DNA of 41,385 bases from positions 1 to 41,385 of IMG/VR virus record IMGVR_UViG_3300006224_000018; one strand, 5' to 3'. The notes beneath the pieces are model-generated. The model saw nothing but the letters and a program-made list of their open reading frames with translations, was not told the DNA's origin and searched no databases. Positions 2,876 to 12,590 of this stretch are shown here, piece after piece. Source of the stretch: a virus. Within the stretch, counting starts at the first letter, position 1. Each line of letters opens with the position of its first letter. A program made the position numbers and the translations under genes.

Positions 2876-3365
2876 CGGTTCCCCTTTGGCCGTTTCCATT
2901 CCCGCCAGCCGGGAGCACCTCGGCTGGCACCTCGATCGCCCGCTTTGCCATCCAGTCGGTTGCACCTATGACGTTGATGGTCAACACGTTAACCGATGGA
3001 GCATTGCCCGCGAGATCGCCGCGGAACTCCCCGATAGCGCGCGCGTAGGGAAGCGCCTGGTTGATCGCCTTCAGGGCGAGGTGCTTCGCCTCGCGGTCGT
3101 GGGTCAACTCGGCCTCGCGCGCCATCCGCTTGAGCATGCCGTAGAACTCCCGAAGGTCGGCGATGAGGTCGGAGTTGGGCGACTCAAGCTCTCGGCGGTA
3201 GGCGGCGGCAAGCTCGGCGGGCATCCGCTCGACGTATCGCCTGACCGATTCCCGCCCGACGCCGAACTGGCACGCTATAGCACGGAAGGGAACACGCGCC
3301 AGGATGGCCTCCTCGATCTCCCGGCGCCGCGGGTGGTGCTCTACTAGCCCAGGACGACCCGCCAT
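2844..3365 (-). CDS. Terminase small subunit-like protein (HTH)
   Basis: 173 residues. Seen: an N-terminal helix-turn-helix (residues about 15-47, EIEEAILARVPFRAIACQFG and ESVRRYVERMP) followed by a long helical region (residues 75-115) and an unstructured Gly/Asn tail. This architecture and the position two genes ahead of terminase large fit a small terminase that recognises the packaging site, but sequence alone does not prove it; it could be another regulator. ATG 3365 is preceded by GGGGGAG at good distance. Upstream in-frame codons (to 3545) are low-complexity Arg/Ser/Pro and are not used. Confidence 0.65.
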   Translation of the reverse strand: MAGRPGLVEHHPRRREIEEAILARVPFRAIACQFGVGRESVRRYVERMPAELAAAYRRELESPNSDLIADLREFYGMLKRMAREAELTHDREAKHLALKAINQALPYARAIGEFRGDLAGNAPSVNVLTINVIGATDWMAKRAIEVPAEVLPAGGNGNGQRGTDENISEGDHE

Positions 3366-4136: not shown

Positions 4137-5312
4137 CTATTCATCTCTGTGCTCCATCCCGGTGAACCAGAGATCAGAGACTTTCCCGTTGCGCGACATG
4201 CCTCCGGGCTCTGAGTGAACGCGTCCTTCTAGCCGTAACGCCTTGAGATGCCTAGACATCGTGGCCTTATCGTAGGGTTTCCCGGTTTTAGGGTTGAACG
4301 GCAGCAATTCTGAGAGCTGGGAAGCCGTAAGGCCGGGATTGGTCTTAATGATCTCGTCCAAGTCATCACGGACGAGATCCTTAGCTTCGGTTGGGGTAGG
4401 CGGCCGGTCGATGCGTTCAAAGGTACCTTCCGGGGTCTGCTTTAGGTAGATCGGGTCGATGGGGATGCCGAGGTTAAGCTTTTTGATCATGAGGCAGACG
4501 GTGCCACGGTCGGAGGTGAGGTTGAGGACGGTGTTGGGGTCGCTCAGGAGGCGGGATGAGCCGCGGGGATGCTGGGAGCCAAGCTCGGGGTTCGGGTGCC
4601 CCTCGTGATGGTTGAGGATTACCAGGGGGCCGCTGGCGGCGAGCTGTTCGGCGATAGAGAGGACTTGGCCCATTTCCTGGGCGGCGTTCTCGTTGACCGA
4701 GTGGGCGCGGGAGAGCGGGTCGAGGACTACTACCTGGATCTCGAGGTCTCGGATCCAGGCGAGGAGGGCGGGGAGGGTGAGTGGATGGAGGAGGTCGATT
4801 TGGCCTTTCAGGGTTGGGCGGCAGACGATGTGAATGCGGGAGAGGGCGGCGGGGTCGCTGCTGGACAGGGCGATGAAGCGATCCCCGATGTAGTACCGGG
4901 GGAGTTCCAGGGAGATGAAGCCGACGGTGCAGGGGCTGGGGATGGGGATGTCGAGCCAAGGGCGGCCGGCGGCGATGGCGTGGGCGAGCTGGAGGAGGAG
5001 CCAGGTCTTTCCGAGGCCGGGCTGGCCGTAGAAGACGGCGACGGTGCCGTGGACGAGGAGTCCGTCCCCGACGATGGATGGCGGTTTCTCGCCGAGGTTA
5101 GCGACGATCGAGGCGGCCGGTTCCGAGGCGCGGGCGATCCACTGCTCGAGTTCGCCGTGGCCGTTGCGTTCGAGGGCGGTCAGGGTAGAGCAGACGGTCG
5201 AGGCGAGTGAGGCGAAGCGTTCGGGGAGGAGATCCCCGGAGGTATAGAGTTGGGCGCCCAGGAGGAGGGTTTGGATCTGATCCGAGTAGAGTCGCTTGGC
5301 CTGGGCATCCAT
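4137..5312 (-). CDS. RepA/AAA_25-type replicative helicase with C-terminal winged helix
   Basis: 391 residues. Seen: Walker A FYGQPGLGKTWLLLQLA, Walker B VVVLDPLSRAH, and a sensor strand LVILNHHEG, the layout of hexameric RecA-like helicases of the RSF1010 RepA/AAA_25 group. A C-terminal winged helix (LTASQLSELLP to SRHLKALRLEGRV) could bind DNA. Start uncertain: ATG 5312 has GGAAG seven bases upstream. ATG 5492 would add 60 Pro-rich residues, and reading to 5747 would translate the pentamer array, which I reject. It is likely the phage replication helicase or helicase-loader; no polymerase is encoded here, so it would recruit host enzymes. Repeat arrays flank it on both sides. Confidence 0.8.
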   Translation of the reverse strand: MDAQAKRLYSDQIQTLLLGAQLYTSGDLLPERFASLASTVCSTLTALERNGHGELEQWIARASEPAASIVANLGEKPPSIVGDGLLVHGTVAVFYGQPGLGKTWLLLQLAHAIAAGRPWLDIPIPSPCTVGFISLELPRYYIGDRFIALSSSDPAALSRIHIVCRPTLKGQIDLLHPLTLPALLAWIRDLEIQVVVLDPLSRAHSVNENAAQEMGQVLSIAEQLAASGPLVILNHHEGHPNPELGSQHPRGSSRLLSDPNTVLNLTSDRGTVCLMIKKLNLGIPIDPIYLKQTPEGTFERIDRPPTPTEAKDLVRDDLDEIIKTNPGLTASQLSELLPFNPKTGKPYDKATMSRHLKALRLEGRVHSEPGGMSRNGKVSDLWFTGMEHRDE

Positions 5313-5487
5313 TCGGGGGCTTCCGTTTTCCTTTGGGGCACGGTCCATGTGCGAGCGAAGGATGAGAAGGGGGATGCGGGGGCGGTCGCCGCGTTGACCG
5401 TCGAGGGCCGCCCCCGCGGGCTCGGGATTGTCGGGTTGTGGGATCAGGTCATCGACCACCTCCTTTCGTGGGTTGAACGGTGCCCCA
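5313..5487 (-). other. Short spacer between helicase start and pentamer array
   Basis: 175 bp in frame with the helicase gene and possibly part of it if translation begins at ATG 5492. The translated product is Pro/Asp-rich without recognisable fold. I see no promoter or other gene here. Confidence 0.4.
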
Positions 5488-6089
5488 ACCATGACTGCCC
5501 GGACCGGCCGCGCCGCGCCCAACCATGCCTTGCCTCGCCCGGCCGTGACCTGCCTCGCCCTGACTGCCCCGCCCCACCTAGCACCGACACGCCCCACCGG
5601 GCCACGACGGGCCACGACGGGCCCTGCCCTGACTGCTCTGCCAAGCCGCGCCCGACACTGCCGAGCCGGGCCCCGTCCTGCCACGCCTTGACTGCCACGC
5701 CGGGCCCGGCCTAGCCCCGCCTTGCCCTGCCGTGCCGTGACTGCCAAGCCAAACCTGGCCGAGACCGGCCCGGCCGTGCCATGCCCTGACTGCCACGCCT
5801 GGCCATGACGTGCCTCGCCCCGCCCTGCCTAGCCCGGCCCGGCCGTGCTAGGCCACGCCGTGACTGCAGCGCTCCGCCACGCCGTGCCGCGCCTTGCTAG
5901 GCCATGACTGCCTCGCCGCGCCTTGCCTTGACACGCCACGCCAGTCACGGCCCCGCCCTGACTGCCCCGCCTCGCCTAGCCCGGACACGCCTTGCCCCGC
6001 TACGCCTAGCAACGACTGCCCCGCCATGCCTGACCCTGCCGGGCCTTGCCCTGCCGAGCCCGGCCATGACTGCCTCGACTCGCCTTGAT
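5488..6089. repeat. Gap-free pentanucleotide array: blocks of GACT + (GCCNN)n
   Basis: The plus strand parses into units of GACT followed by n pentamers GCCNN. GACT markers start at 5493, 5562, 5631, 5690, 5739, 5788, 5862, 5906, 5960, 6014 and 6068. They give n = 13, 13, 11, 9, 9, 14, 8, 10, 10 and 10. By my hand count 82 of the 107 pentamers are exact GCCNN; the others mostly differ by one base in GCC. No insertion or deletion breaks the phase over about 580 bp. Ten markers sit in TGACTGC, one in CGACTGC. The array starts near the helicase gene and ends at the stop codon of the upstream gene. A 5-bp period excludes ordinary protein coding. Function unknown; origin, partition site, structured RNA or architectural DNA are possible. 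Confidence 0.9.
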
Positions 6090-6692
6090 TTATTCGGGGG
6101 TTTCGACAATGAATCCAGATGTACTGGAAGGTCGCCAGGGTCCAATGCCGGTGCGGCCATCATCCTTCGGCGGGCGCGCACCCTTCTTCTTTCCCCGCCG
6201 ATTCGACTTGTGGTAGGACTCGCGCGCCTTCCTTCCCGCCTCGATCAGCATCTCCACTTCCGTAGCAAAGCTGGCGATACGTTCGTAACGCTCCTCCCAC
6301 GCTTCGTGTTCTTTCAAGGCATTCGTGACGACCTGCTCTCGCAAGTCTTGGTCAACCATGATGTCTTTGGTCGCGCGGTAGGCTCGCTCCTGATGTTTCA
6401 CCACGGGGAAGTAGGCACGGAACGATCGCTTCGTTCCCTTCGTGGTGACGATGATTTCCACGATGCTGCGCATGAGATAGCGGGCAGTGGAAATGCGATC
6501 ACGCTGCGCCGCTAGAGTGTCGTTCCACTCGAACTCCCCGTGGTGGGGAGCCCGCGTATCGCGGGCATCCTCCACCACGGCCTCCGGGTCGAGCTTCCCT
6601 CCGTTCCTCTTGCGCAGCTCTGCGAACCGCTTGCCGACGGCGGTCGCATCGGACTTGATCCTGGCGCCGTCAGCCCATTGATAGGACTCCAA
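6090..6692 (-). CDS. Conserved phage protein of unknown function, TTG start
   Basis: 200 residues. Seen: central pattern VVEDARDTRAPHHGEFEW followed by DTLAAQRDRISTARYLMRSI, which I recognise as recurrent in phage proteins of unknown role, then a beta segment, a helical middle and a Lys/Arg-rich C-terminus (KSNRRGKKKGARPP). The start is decided by the ribosome site: AAGGAGG lies seven bases before TTG 6692 and there is no better ATG. The gene's TAA ends exactly where the pentamer array begins, so the array is its 3' untranslated region if transcription continues. The basic tail suggests nucleic-acid contact (inference). Confidence 0.75.
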   Translation of the reverse strand: MESYQWADGARIKSDATAVGKRFAELRKRNGGKLDPEAVVEDARDTRAPHHGEFEWNDTLAAQRDRISTARYLMRSIVEIIVTTKGTKRSFRAYFPVVKHQERAYRATKDIMVDQDLREQVVTNALKEHEAWEERYERIASFATEVEMLIEAGRKARESYHKSNRRGKKKGARPPKDDGRTGIGPWRPSSTSGFIVETPE

Positions 6693-6694
6693 GG

Positions 6695-7372
6695 CTAGCC
6701 CTCCTTAACGGCAAACATGCCATGCGTGCCGTTCTTCTGTGGACGCCAGTCTCCGACACCGATGCAGAACCCCGCATAGTTCAGGAGGTTGGCGATCTGC
6801 TCGATGGACATGACGCGCGGGTTGTAGAGGATGCGGAGCTTGCATTCCCAATTCTCATCGTGTTCGCCACGGTAGCGGATATCGGGCTTGCGCTGACCGA
6901 TTCGGACGATGTCCTCACGGATATGCGGCTTCACCTTCTCAACGGGGATCAAGTCACCCAGGACGTAGAAGGCGCCCCGCGCGACAACCTTGGTGATCCC
7001 CGGCAGGAAAGAGCACGCATCGACAGCGGCCAGCTTGAAGGCCGATGCCGGGATGCAACTGCGCCCAGCCGAGTCGAGGTAGAGGCTATCCCGGTAGTCC
7101 TGTTCGGGATCTTTCGCTTCGCGAGGCTCATCGGCCTGCTGCATGTGCTTCTGCAGCATGATCCGCTTGTTCTTGACCGACCACTTGTGTGGGATGTGAG
7201 AAGTTCTCCCGCTCACAGTGAGGGTCGTCTCCTTGAGTTCGATCTTCGGAATGGAGACGATCTGCTCTCCCTTGGGGCCCTTCTTTGCTTTCTGCTCGAG
7301 GATAGCGGTGGCGACTTGCTTGGCGCCGTTTCCGGCATCCCTGGCGAGCCGATTGATGGTTGCCGCTTTCAT
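6695..7372 (-). CDS. Conserved phage protein, unknown function
   Basis: 225 residues. Seen: an N-terminal IPKIELKETTLTVSG strand region with IPHKWS, a middle with CIPASAFKLAAVDACSFLPG, then VARGAFYVLGDLIPVE, and a C-terminal half KLRILYNPRVMS to FCIGVGDWRPQKNG. The last two blocks recur in a phage family of unknown function; the alternation of strands and a Gly-rich loop vaguely recalls a RAMP/ferredoxin fold, but I cannot support more. ATG 7372 overlaps the stop of the nuclease gene (ATGA) and has GGAGGGAAAGGA just before it, so it is preferred to an ATG five codons upstream. Probably part of early DNA metabolism. Confidence 0.75.
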   Translation of the reverse strand: MKAATINRLARDAGNGAKQVATAILEQKAKKGPKGEQIVSIPKIELKETTLTVSGRTSHIPHKWSVKNKRIMLQKHMQQADEPREAKDPEQDYRDSLYLDSAGRSCIPASAFKLAAVDACSFLPGITKVVARGAFYVLGDLIPVEKVKPHIREDIVRIGQRKPDIRYRGEHDENWECKLRILYNPRVMSIEQIANLLNYAGFCIGVGDWRPQKNGTHGMFAVKEG

Positions 7373-7659
7373 TCCTTTCCCTCCCATCCGATGACGGCCA
7401 GGGCCTCGTCGAGCGTGGACACGATCGCGTAGGCGCCGGGCCAGGTTTCAGCGAGTCGTTTCTGTGATGGCTGGATGCGTGACGGTGAGCGGCGGTCGGG
7501 CCGTTTCACTTCCAGCAAAATCGTCTTTCCGCGGTAGCCGACGGCGAGGTCGGCCTCGGCGTTGAGGACGAGCACACCGATCTCGAGGGCGCGGAGGCCC
7601 GCGACGATGGCGGCCTGGTTCGCGTCGGCCTTCCGCGCGCGCCGGGGCTGGACGGTCAT
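7369..7659 (-). CDS. VRR-NUC-like small PD-(D/E)XK nuclease
   Basis: 96 residues. Seen: ADANQAAIVAGLRALEIGV at 11-29, D38 in ADLAVGYRG, the catalytic LLEVKRP with E50-x-K52, then SPSRIQPSQKRLAETWPGAY and a final STLDEALAVIGW. This is the standard compact phage VRR-NUC/Holliday-junction-resolvase-like layout. Likely a structure-specific endonuclease for recombination or replication. ATG 7659 has GGAGG ten bases upstream; a GTG six codons earlier is possible. Four-base overlaps join it to both neighbours. Confidence 0.8.
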   Translation of the reverse strand: MTVQPRRARKADANQAAIVAGLRALEIGVLVLNAEADLAVGYRGKTILLEVKRPDRRSPSRIQPSQKRLAETWPGAYAIVSTLDEALAVIGWEGKE

Positions 7660-9971: not shown

Positions 9972-10225
9972 CGTGCCACCTCGTAAGTAGGGCGGCGGGG
10001 CGAGGACGGGTATCCCGCGCCGTCGAGCCGGTTAGATGGCGACTCTCTCGGCGTGCCCCGCCGCAACTCGTACTTGGCCGCGCGCAGCAACTCGAGCCCG
10101 CTCCGCGCCTCCAGGGTCAGCCCGATCCACGCGTGCTGGTGGCGCAGCCGCTCGGCTTCCCGCTCGCAGATCAAGTCAAGGATCGCCGCCGCCTGCTCGT
10201 AGGTCAGCGAGATGCGTCCGGTCAT
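9968..10225 (-). CDS. Hypothetical small helical protein
   Basis: 85 residues. Seen: ISLTYEQAAAILDLICEREAERLRHQ, two helices, then a basic Pro-rich tail. ATG 10225 has GGAACG upstream and overlaps the stop of the IbrA-like gene (ATGA), so it is the first gene translated after the IbrB/IbrA pair. Not recognised. Confidence 0.6.
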   Translation of the reverse strand: MTGRISLTYEQAAAILDLICEREAERLRHQHAWIGLTLEARSGLELLRAAKYELRRGTPRESPSNRLDGAGYPSSPRRPTYEVAR

Positions 10226-11430
10226 TGGCTCGTTCCTCTTCTGGCATGGCGGCGCGCCCTGAATTGTTCCCACGCATCGCTCTTTGGTTGCGCCATGCCT
10301 AGTCCCTTGCACCACCAATCGTTTCTGAGTAGCACCTTGCACATGCGCCGCCATGACGGCGACCAGCACTTTGCTTCAAGTTCAGGCGGCGCCTCGTCTG
10401 GAATATCTTGATAACCACGTCTACGCCATCCCACGATGAACTTTTTGAATCTGATGGTGTAGTGATCGCGTGTCTTCTTTGGCATCGTCTGCAGTAGTAG
10501 ATTGCAGAAACTGCGCCATGTGTGATGAGGCGGCTTGGTAATCTTCCCGTAGCCGGCGACATTGCCCTTCTCTTCAACGTACATCGCCCCGGAGTTGGCA
10601 CCGTTCACTCGCGCCACTAGCTTGAACCAGGTGGCAGGCTCCAGGATGTGATAGAGCCACAAGCCGCGCCGTTGATCGTCACCGAATGGCTGGCACAGTC
10701 GTTGACTTGCAAGCGGGACGCCAGCTAGGTGCATTTTATCGTAGATGCGGTTGTGCGCTAGGTGCGGGTACTTCGCGTGGAAGCGCCAGATATCCTGAGT
10801 AGTCCAGTCGTAGATCGGATAGATGTTATAGGTATCGGCCACGATCTTCGTGGTCCATCGATGGCCGCGGAAAGTAAGGTTGCGCTTCTCCCATGTTGCC
10901 ACCGCGCAGTAGCGATGCAAGCTCTCCTGGGCTCGAATACCGATGAACCCGGCGGTGCGCTCGCCCTGTCCGTACCACTCCCCGAACAGCACGATGAACT
11001 CCTCGAACTCCATCCCCGGCACTGCGAATGGATAGTCGTGCTCCGTCTTAGCGCCCACCGGCTTCTCGCGCACCCAGATATCGCGTTTTTCTGGATCCCA
11101 GCACGTCCAGCGTGGTTCATAGTTCGTGACGGCATTCCGCAGGAGCATGGGCATCGCGATCCAGTGGGGATCGATGTAGTCCCGATAGCGTCGGAACATA
11201 TCCTCCACGTGCGCTATCGTGTCGGCGTACTGCGCCTCGAAGTCAATGAACATGACTCCGACCTTCCGCTGGCGCTCTTTGGCCGCTTCCATGACGAGAT
11301 GCAGGAGGACGCTGCTATCCTTCCCGCCCGAGAAGGCGACATATGCGCGCGGGAAGTTGTCCATGATGATCGCGATCCGCTCGCGCGCGGCTGCAAGTAC
11401 ATCCTTGTCCGAGAACTTCTTGATCGCCAT
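10222..11430 (-). CDS. IbrA-like PAPS-reductase-family protein (N-type ATP pyrophosphatase)
   Basis: 402 residues. Seen: the PP-loop AFSGGKDSSVLLHL at residues 32-45 (S34-S39), then VMFIDFEAQYADTI, and a C-terminal half with YPIYDWTTQDIWRFH and a conserved Trp/Tyr-rich region as in DUF3440/IbrA proteins. Relatives include PAPS reductase and DndC; the core activates a carboxyl, sulfate or base by adenylation. It is paired with an IbrB-like gene whose stop overlaps its ATG (TGATG). The Ibr pair is known from an E. coli prophage as a regulator of immunoglobulin-binding genes; its chemistry is not settled. DNA modification or sulfur-linked chemistry is an inference. Confidence 0.85.
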   Translation of the reverse strand: MAIKKFSDKDVLAAARERIAIIMDNFPRAYVAFSGGKDSSVLLHLVMEAAKERQRKVGVMFIDFEAQYADTIAHVEDMFRRYRDYIDPHWIAMPMLLRNAVTNYEPRWTCWDPEKRDIWVREKPVGAKTEHDYPFAVPGMEFEEFIVLFGEWYGQGERTAGFIGIRAQESLHRYCAVATWEKRNLTFRGHRWTTKIVADTYNIYPIYDWTTQDIWRFHAKYPHLAHNRIYDKMHLAGVPLASQRLCQPFGDDQRRGLWLYHILEPATWFKLVARVNGANSGAMYVEEKGNVAGYGKITKPPHHTWRSFCNLLLQTMPKKTRDHYTIRFKKFIVGWRRRGYQDIPDEAPPELEAKCWSPSWRRMCKVLLRNDWWCKGLGMAQPKSDAWEQFRARRHARRGTSQ

Positions 11431-12590
11431 CAGTAGATCTCCATCTGGCGATCGTAGGAGTATGCTTCTTCCATCGTGACCGGATCGCGGCCGTTGTCCT
11501 TGAGCCAAGTATTCAGCGCGGTGAGCGCCGTCTCATTGGCGAGCCGTTGCTCTTCTTCCGAGAGAAGGTAGAACCCGCTCCGATAGACCGCTGGAATCCC
11601 AAGCGCGTAGCACGCTGCCGCCTGACCTAGCCACGCGATCCGGTTCATAGCGCGGTTCGTCAAGTAGTGCTCGCATGAATGCTTCCACTCGTGGATCACA
11701 TGGTCGAGCGCATCGGCAAAGGCGGGAAGATCGGACAGGAACTTGCGGTATGCCTCCTCGCACTCCATGCGAGTCGTTCCCTCCTTGCTGCTCGCGTAGA
11801 ACCCGGCCTTGTAGCACTCCCACTTGTCGTAGGTATGGAAGATCCTGGTTTCATCATTCGTGTTCACCGTGCGGACCTGCACCTCGGCCTCAAGTTCCTC
11901 TAGGTCGTCGGTCAACTCCTCGAAATCGTTCTCCGTGATGGCGCCTTCGACGGTCCACGACTTCGAAAACTCCTGATCGGAGAAGACGTCGGCTAGTCCC
12001 GTTATCTGACAGAGACGAAGGATCTCGTCCTGATCCATGCCGAGTTCCCTGGCGATCCGCTCGTCCGTCCAGTTGCGCCGCTTGAGTTCAACTACGATAT
12101 CCGACATGGCTTCGACTTGGTGCTTGCCTCGGGCCCGATTGTGCCGGATCGTGGCCGCGATGCGATCTCCTCGGTCCTGTCGTTCTGCGTTGATGATCGA
12201 GAGCGGGATATAGCCCTTGATCCGAGAGCGAACAGCGGGAGACTCGCGGGCCACCCGGTTACGGTGGAACCCATCTACCACTTCGTAGTGGTCGCAGTTC
12301 TTCCAAGCAACGATCGGTTGCGTGTATCCATCTTCATGGATCGAGTGCTCAAGCAGGCGCATCTCTGGAGGAGCTACGCTGTTGGGGTTGTAGTCATTAG
12401 CCTTGACGCTCTCGAGCCTGATCCACTGAACACAATCTACCGGCTCAGTCGCGAACGGGCTTATCTTATGAAGCATGACGCGCAGCAGGTTGATCGTCTC
12501 GATTTTGGACTCAAGCGGCTGATTCTCGATCTCCGCGAAGAGTTGCTGCGCGCGCTCGATGATGCTCCCGCCGATCAGGTCGAGTTGCAT
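11430..12590 (-). CDS. IbrB-like ParB-domain protein
   Basis: 386 residues. Seen: a ParB/sulfiredoxin-like domain at about 52-140 (VQWIRLESVKANDYNPN, HSIHEDGYTQPIVAW, YEVVDGFHRNRVA, where DGFHR replaces the usual GERR motif), then a helix-turn-helix-like segment at about 165-200 (NWTDERIARELGMDQDEILRL), and a C-terminal half of unknown fold. ATG 12590 follows the 28-residue ORF stop directly; GGAG lies close upstream. Pairing with the PAPS-reductase-like protein is the defining feature of IbrB. ParB-like domains bind or hydrolyse nucleotides and can act on DNA. Confidence 0.85.
   Translation of the reverse strand: MQLDLIGGSIIERAQQLFAEIENQPLESKIETINLLRVMLHKISPFATEPVDCVQWIRLESVKANDYNPNSVAPPEMRLLEHSIHEDGYTQPIVAWKNCDHYEVVDGFHRNRVARESPAVRSRIKGYIPLSIINAERQDRGDRIAATIRHNRARGKHQVEAMSDIVVELKRRNWTDERIARELGMDQDEILRLCQITGLADVFSDQEFSKSWTVEGAITENDFEELTDDLEELEAEVQVRTVNTNDETRIFHTYDKWECYKAGFYASSKEGTTRMECEEAYRKFLSDLPAFADALDHVIHEWKHSCEHYLTNRAMNRIAWLGQAAACYALGIPAVYRSGFYLLSEEEQRLANETALTALNTWLKDNGRDPVTMEEAYSYDRQMEIY

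What the first reader, a model, noticed from the sequence alone, without database searches (positions are those of the whole stretch)
5488..6089. A 600-bp gap-free array of GACT markers and GCCNN pentamers
The sequence parses with no phase error into GACT + (GCCNN)n. The ten intervals between the eleven GACT markers (69, 69, 59, 49, 49, 74, 44, 54, 54, 54 bp) all equal 5n+4. In 107 pentamers, 82 are exact GCCNN by hand count and the rest are almost all single substitutions. So substitutions are tolerated but every length change has been a whole pentamer. That is neither coding nor a CRISPR, microsatellite or classical iteron. Five base pairs is about half a helical turn; the 4-base marker resets the register. 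The array lies between a replicative helicase and a conserved phage gene. I know no described system with this design.
Basis: seen in the sequence. Interest (0 to 1): 0.92.

Follow-up and report, generated by a model that had tools for sequence, protein, structure and literature searches.

The report
Phage RNA-guide array of VIPR type
The odd 600-base pattern is a string of about ten RNA guides that a phage appears to use, with a small CRISPR-like protein encoded next door, to recognise and silence rival phages; the system (VIPR) was first described in a 2026 preprint, and this is a new member whose guides are joined head to tail by a one-base shift.

Summary
The interpretation as phased DNA sites with no described counterpart is wrong. 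Read on the minus strand, the array is (GGY NN)n, directly downstream of two minus-strand genes in an apparent operon. The gene at 6695-7387 encodes a RAMP protein: its AlphaFold model matches Csm3/Cas7 in the top 50 PDB hits, and its family profile finds the Vipr of phage SUSP1 (E=1.2e-13). The gene at 6090-6692 encodes a partner present in 97 of 109 related loci. This is the anatomy of VIPR (PMC13142463, 2026): RNA guides whose NN pairs read DNA with one skipped base. 62 of 79 independently found relatives carry such arrays, always on the vipr strand. The GACT 'marker' is a one-nucleotide spacer (A) instead of two. It recurs every 9-13 triplets in 84 of 86 arrays (335 shifts of -1, 8 of +1) and probably delimits guides. 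Targets of the window's own guides were not found. Two relatives' guides match exactly under the one-base-skip rule, to a sibling phage's tape-measure gene and to a rival vipr gene; no shuffled guide did.

The parts
5493..6084 (-). vrRNA guide array: ten complete guide units (8-14 NN dinucleotides each, separated by GGC-like triplets) plus a partial first unit, joined by 4-nt AGTC junctions (GACT on the + strand) with no tails between units
6014..6067 (-). guide unit 1 in transcript order, NN = AT CG TC AG AA CC AG CA AT GG; the others are 5960-6013, 5906-5959, 5862-5905, 5788-5861, 5739-5787, 5690-5738, 5631-5689, 5562-5630, 5493-5561
   Evidence: parse
6068..6071 (-). one of eleven junctions (AGTC on the minus strand; starts at 5493, 5562, 5631, 5690, 5739, 5788, 5862, 5906, 5960, 6014, 6068): 1-nt A spacer plus a GTC triplet, a -1 register shift that probably delimits guides
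6695..7387 (-). vipr: RAMP-fold RNA-guide-binding protein, 230 aa, with G-loop motif GVGDWRPQKNGTHGMF; PHROG 4652 (unknown function)
6090..6692 (-). vap: conserved partner gene, 200 aa, PHROG 15946 (unknown function); homologues beside vipr in 97 of 109 loci; predicted alpha/beta fold, no significant PDB match
4137..5459 (-). neighbour, not part of the system: RecA/DnaB-like helicase (Pfam AAA_25) downstream of the array; the start codon is uncertain and the automatic ORF to 5747 runs falsely into the array

Best explanation
The stretch is the guide array of a phage-borne VIPR system. It is probably transcribed leftward in one operon, vipr (7387-6695), vap (6692-6090), array (6084-5493); co-transcription is inferred from spacing and strand. 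The RNA carries about ten guides. Each is a run of GGC triplets, held by successive Vipr (RAMP) subunits, with hypervariable NN pairs between them that base-pair with double-stranded DNA, skipping one target base per NN. Binding would repress transcription of a competitor's gene. The AGTC junctions (GACT on the other strand) shorten one spacer from two bases to one; this breaks the register and most likely marks where one guide ends and the next begins, taking the place of the 3' tails of SUSP1-type guides. Shown here: the array, the RAMP fold of the neighbour, homology to SUSP1 Vipr, the partner gene, and conserved association, strand and junction. Taken from the preprint: RNA guiding, the 1-nt skip and repression. 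Inferred: transcription in this phage, the role of the junction, and the targets.
For: Array and statistics. Two protein families accompany such arrays in unrelated phages. Family A model: the top 50 PDB hits are all type III/VII Csm3, Cas7 or gRAMP chains, probability 1.00, best E 7.6e-6; best viral matches include a 'Cas system-associated RAMP superfamily protein'. The family A profile finds the reference system in phage SUSP1, E=1.2e-13, in an open frame containing GVGDWRPRFGRF, and the same kind of parse finds SUSP1's separate GGY/NN guides with repeated tails. In 79 relatives found by protein alone, 62 have GGY/NN arrays, all on the vipr strand and none on the other. vap is next to vipr in 97 of 109. 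Nearest relative L044 (56% identity) has the same vipr-vap-array order and similar 3' flank, but four units with different NN. Isolated register shifts: 335 of -1, 8 of +1, 3 of -2, with clean -1 shifts in 84 of 86 arrays; GGC before the junction in 96% against 49% elsewhere, spacer A in 87%. Decoding: omitting the last NN, two of roughly 700 guides have exact 18/18 matches under skip 1, none under skips 0, 2 or 3, none in 12 shuffled sets; one is the Quico/Florinda guide to the Che8-type tape-measure gene with skipped bases at wobble positions, the other hits the conserved MGTADLRYR codons of a vipr gene. Published mechanism: PMC13142463.
Against: No target was found for the window's own guides: five 9-NN patterns had no exact match in IMG/VR, and none stood out in 3.2 Mb of local sequence. 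Leaving out the last NN was decided after seeing the two best hits; with full guides the excess of skip-1 matches over shuffles is small. About a quarter of the window's triplets deviate from GGC, so some guides may be decayed. No transcript data. The preprint's supplement, with the seven types and the 'staggered arrays', could not be opened, so the type is not assigned.
Confidence: 0.93

Rival explanations
1. The array is a DNA site, a replication origin or partition-like locus, bound by a protein with a half-turn footprint, possibly the neighbouring helicase or the 6090-6692 product.
For: It lies beside a helicase gene. The vap model has only insignificant matches, some of them to DNA-binding proteins such as AspA, RepE and RctB, E > 0.5. 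A ParB-like gene is elsewhere in the window.
Against: In relatives the array goes with vipr and vap, not with a helicase, and always lies on the vipr strand, which a DNA-binding site would not need. Mycobacteriophage and Gordonia copies lie in other gene neighbourhoods. The NN positions are freely variable.
Confidence: 0.03
2. A cis-acting RNA, such as a leader bound by a ring-shaped regulator in the manner of TRAP (triplets with 2-nt spacers, about 11 per ring), controls the downstream gene.
For: The format of triplets with 2-nt spacers in groups of about 11 resembles TRAP sites (recalled, not tested). The array precedes the helicase gene on the same strand.
Against: The neighbouring protein has a RAMP fold and is homologous to SUSP1 Vipr. 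In relatives the array can lie upstream of, between or downstream of vipr and vap. A regulator would not explain up to about 19 different units in one array (L051).
Confidence: 0.02
3. Decayed simple repeat or assembly artefact.
For: Low-complexity character; about a quarter of the triplets deviate.
Against: The NN are high in diversity while the triplets are conserved; the same format recurs in many independent assemblies, including finished isolate phages, next to the same gene pair.
Confidence: 0.01

Closest known systems
VIPR, Viral Interference Programmable Repeat (PMC13142463, bioRxiv 2026.04.26.720920 v2)
   Same: Phage-borne RAMP protein of about 20 kDa, partner gene, GGY/NN tandem pentamer guides of about 10 repeats with hypervariable NN.
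   Different: Guides are fused head to tail without 3' tails and are separated only by a -1 nt shift; the junction triplet is GTC in the window. [quoted passage not shown] S18, not readable here), which may be this format.
VIPR of Escherichia phage SUSP1 (type II)
   Same: The family profile matches its Vipr at E=1.2e-13 and both have the GVGDWRP G-loop; the array is on the vipr strand.
   Different: SUSP1 has separate guides of 11-15 triplets, each followed by a conserved tail; sequence relation of its Vap to the window's was not tested.
Class 1 CRISPR effectors (Csm3/Cas7 backbone, crRNA)
   Same: RAMP fold of the backbone protein.
   Different: No CRISPR repeats and no other cas gene recognised next to the array; the array format is a 5-nt period, not identical repeats and spacers.
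Cheoctovirus (cluster F1) mycobacteriophage loci gp51/gp52 of Saal and relatives
   Same: Homologous vipr and vap with GGC/NN arrays and A junctions; annotated only as hypothetical proteins.
   Different: The array precedes vipr, the host is Mycobacterium, and the triplets are nearly perfect.

Membership tests
VIPR | RAMP-fold Vipr protein with a glycine-rich loop next to the array | tested here: met
   G-rich C-terminal motif conserved in the family; PDB matches are Csm3/Cas7
VIPR | Sequence homology to a characterised Vipr (SUSP1) | tested here: met
   profile hit E=1.2e-13, 46.5 bits, over the C-terminal region (profile positions 151-209)
VIPR | Guide RNA of 9-16 YNNGG repeats, GGY conserved and NN hypervariable | tested here: met
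   units of 8-14 NN; 76% exact GGC among ordinary triplets; all 16 NN types occur
VIPR | Accessory vap gene beside vipr | tested here: met
   conserved partner in 97 of 109 loci; which of vap1-6 it corresponds to could not be checked
VIPR | Targets read by NN with a 1-nt skip | tested here: inconclusive
   No target for the window's guides; two exact skip-1 matches for relatives' guides and none in controls
VIPR | vrRNA transcribed and bound by Vipr; represses target transcription | not testable with these tools
   Needs RNA sequencing, pull-down and reporter assays
VIPR type II (SUSP1-like) | Each guide followed by a conserved 3' tail | tested here: not met
   Window units abut; SUSP1 guides show the tail. 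The window is therefore not filed as type II
CRISPR-Cas | Identical repeats with unique spacers, and cas genes | tested here: not met
   no such repeats in the tandem-repeat scan, no Rfam match, no cas gene recognised near the array apart from the RAMP fold of vipr
Iteron or replication origin | Conserved protein-binding repeats tied to a replication initiator | tested here: not met
   the association is with vipr and vap, strand-locked, not with the helicase

The most novel reading that the evidence does not exclude
The array is a distinct guide-array format within VIPR: a tail-less polycistronic string in which a single-nucleotide spacer deletion (GGC-A-GGY; AGTC here) is the only delimiter between guides, so that a register shift itself tells Vipr where to begin and end an oligomer or where the RNA is cut. 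The last NN before the junction may belong to the signal rather than to the guide.
Probability: 0.4. Interest if true: 0.75.

Novelty: new member of a known kind. Interest (0 to 1): 0.62.

Why it matters
VIPR is a newly described RNA-guided way to read DNA and a proposed ancestor of CRISPR effectors, described so far in one preprint. This finding was reached independently from raw sequence. It shows that the system is common in phages (528 relatives among capped IMG/VR candidates, plus cluster F1 mycobacteriophages, Gordonia phages, a cyanophage and bacterial genomes), identifies unannotated members in tractable laboratory phages, and points to a one-base punctuation rule for joined guides that can be tested directly. 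The F1 mycobacteriophages with complete genomes and a likely decoded target, the tape-measure gene of Che8-type siblings, make a phage-on-phage test possible in M. smegmatis.

Tried and rejected
Rfam and tRNA/tmRNA scans of the window: nothing. Pfam, NCBIfam and PADLOC do not recognise the two proteins; PHROGs gives only families of unknown function. TRAP-like ring binding was considered and dropped after the RAMP fold result. The first genome-contig search with alignment A1 failed for lack of a conserved stretch and was repeated with A2. Relatives in GTDB span Rhizobiales, Clostridia, Gemmatimonadetes and others, so the window's host stays unknown. Exact IMG/VR scans with five of the window's guides: no target. 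First local target scan of 1.5 Mb: no signal; skip-3 hits were probably unmasked arrays of AT-rich relatives. One shared F1 guide had no match in 22 phage genomes. Several mycobacteriophage accessions were not held. The vap fold search gave no significant match. The literature holds a single VIPR paper in the open library.

Full report
Observation. The array is real and as described. GACT occurs at 5493, 5562, 5631, 5690, 5739, 5788, 5862, 5906, 5960, 6014 and 6068, and 82 of the 107 pentamers between the first and last are exact GCCNN. A gap-free parse gives 95 in-phase elements against 13.8±2.2 (maximum 22 of 1000) in dinucleotide-preserving shuffles, and no other part of the window shows the pattern on either strand. 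Rfam and tRNA scans are empty.

Strand and format. On the minus strand the array reads GGC NN GGC NN ... GGC A GTC AN GGC. The 'marker' is a junction at which the 2-nt spacer is shortened to one base, A, followed in this window by a GTC triplet (all nine clean junctions, against 9% of other triplets). The window is a virus record of 41,385 bases of a tailed phage with terminase, tape-measure, head and replication genes. The array starts five bases after the stop codon of the minus-strand gene 6090-6692, which itself starts two bases after 6695-7387 ends; this suggests a single transcription unit (inferred from sequence, not shown).

Relatives of the array. A DNA pattern search of IMG/VR found many contigs with the same format. 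A blastn search found it in cluster F1 mycobacteriophages and others, beside genes annotated only as hypothetical. Clustering all flanking ORFs gave two protein families next to the arrays: A, the 6695-7387 family, in 16 loci, and B, the 6090-6692 family, in 14.

Identity of the proteins. Family A has a conserved G-rich C-terminal motif, GxGxxR....G..G. An AlphaFold model from 10 aligned sequences (mean pLDDT 78.8) matches solved type III Csm3, type VII Cas7 and gRAMP chains in all of the top 50 PDB hits, probability 1.00, best E 7.6e-6. TM-scores are modest, about 0.4-0.5, as expected for remote homologues. A literature search for pentanucleotide repeats and phages returned PMC13142463, which describes VIPR: a phage RAMP protein (Vipr), an accessory protein (Vap), and guides of 9-16 YNNGG repeats whose NN dinucleotides pair with DNA while one target base is skipped per repeat. 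As a direct test I searched the reference phage SUSP1 with the family A profile: one hit, E=1.2e-13, in a 201-codon open frame with the same GVGDWRP motif. A parse of the same kind also found three separate SUSP1 guides, with repeated tails. Family B gave a confident model (pLDDT 89.0) without any significant PDB match; weak hits include DNA-binding proteins but mean little.

Independence of the association. Relatives of family A were then collected by protein sequence alone: 528 of the candidates in IMG/VR, 80 kept, and 30 in GTDB genomes. Of 79 new viral loci, 62 carry GGY/NN arrays and none has one on the strand opposite vipr. The partner B is beside A in 97 of 109. The nearest relative, L044 (56% identity), has vipr, vap, a four-unit array and a similar 3' flank, but none of the window's NN strings. 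Conserved triplets with hypervariable NN and variable unit number are what guides should look like.

The junction. When the parser is allowed steps of 3, 4, 6 and 7 at equal cost, isolated register shifts in 86 arrays are 335 of -1, 8 of +1 and 3 of -2; 84 of the 86 arrays have at least one clean -1 shift. The spacer base is A in 87% and the preceding triplet is exact GGC in 96%, against 49% of triplets elsewhere. Units between junctions have a median of 10-11 triplets. This is a punctuation signal, not drift. [quoted passage not shown] S18), which I could not read, so I do not claim the format as new. SUSP1-type guides end in a conserved tail that this array lacks, so the window should not be filed as type II.

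Targets. Five window guides as 9-NN patterns have no exact skip-1 match in IMG/VR. For relatives I scanned about 700 unique guides against 3.2 Mb (arrays masked) with skips 0-3 and shuffled NN order. With full guides the excess at skip 1 is small. Two of the best hits share one feature: their only mismatches are in the last NN, 'AT'; in actinophage arrays that position is strongly biased to AT. Leaving out the last NN of every guide gives two exact 18/18 matches at skip 1, none at skips 0, 2 or 3, and none in 12 shuffled sets; this step was chosen after seeing the hits. Match 1: a guide of mycobacteriophages Quico and Florinda to Che8 gp14, a tape-measure gene by PHROGs, with the skipped base at the codon wobble position. 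The other F1 phages examined carry no close match, except two Che8-related contigs in IMG/VR. The same 9-NN pattern also occurs in 12 other IMG/VR contigs, mostly in frame with wobble at the skip, so in-frame alignment alone is weak evidence. Among 20 actinophage guides it is the only one with E below 0.01 (0.0001). Match 2: a guide of a Lachnospiraceae locus to the MGTADLRYR codons of a vipr gene, in line with the preprint's report that some guides aim at other VIPR systems.

Conclusion. The finding is a genuine and striking feature, correctly measured, whose kind was described in 2026. The window adds a member of unassigned type with a long, tail-less, one-base-punctuated array. The helical-phasing idea and the link to the helicase are not supported.

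Noticed in passing
L037-L039 and L153-L160; e.g. NC_023580.1 36613-37569, NC_028751.1, NC_028889.1: 27 GenBank records of cluster F1 mycobacteriophages carry vipr homologues, with arrays in all those examined; several annotated small 'hypothetical proteins' (for example Donkeykong gp48) overlap the array and are probably false gene calls.
   Followed up: partly
L043 / L183 (OQ594955.1, Pseudomonas phage LESphi2, about 4.4-5.9 kb of the record): A distant Vipr relative with three separate GGY/NN guide runs of 10-12 triplets in a P. aeruginosa LES prophage.
   Followed up: no
L040 (Cyanophage Cy-LDV1, BK059895.1) and L041, L042 (Gordonia phages UmaThurman and ODay): Vipr homologues with arrays (two arrays in the cyanophage), annotated as hypothetical proteins.
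   Followed up: partly
L053, L058, L066, L067, L072-L074, L077, L079-L081, L085, L094: AT-rich phages (G+C about 0.39) with Vipr relatives whose arrays use looser triplets (GTT, GGA, GGT) and are mostly missed by a strict GGY pattern.
   Followed up: no
L149 guide near 3074, and the vipr gene of L123 at 10442-10470: The guide spells the first two codon bases of MGTADLRYR, a motif conserved in Vipr itself: a possible guide against rival VIPR systems.
   Followed up: partly
window 10222-12590: A PAPS-reductase-like gene (10222-11508) overlapping a ParB-like gene (11430-12590), an auxiliary or epigenetic-looking pair in the phage.
   Followed up: no
window 4137-5747: The automatic helicase ORF runs 5' into the guide array; the true start is probably near 5459 or downstream.
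   Followed up: partly
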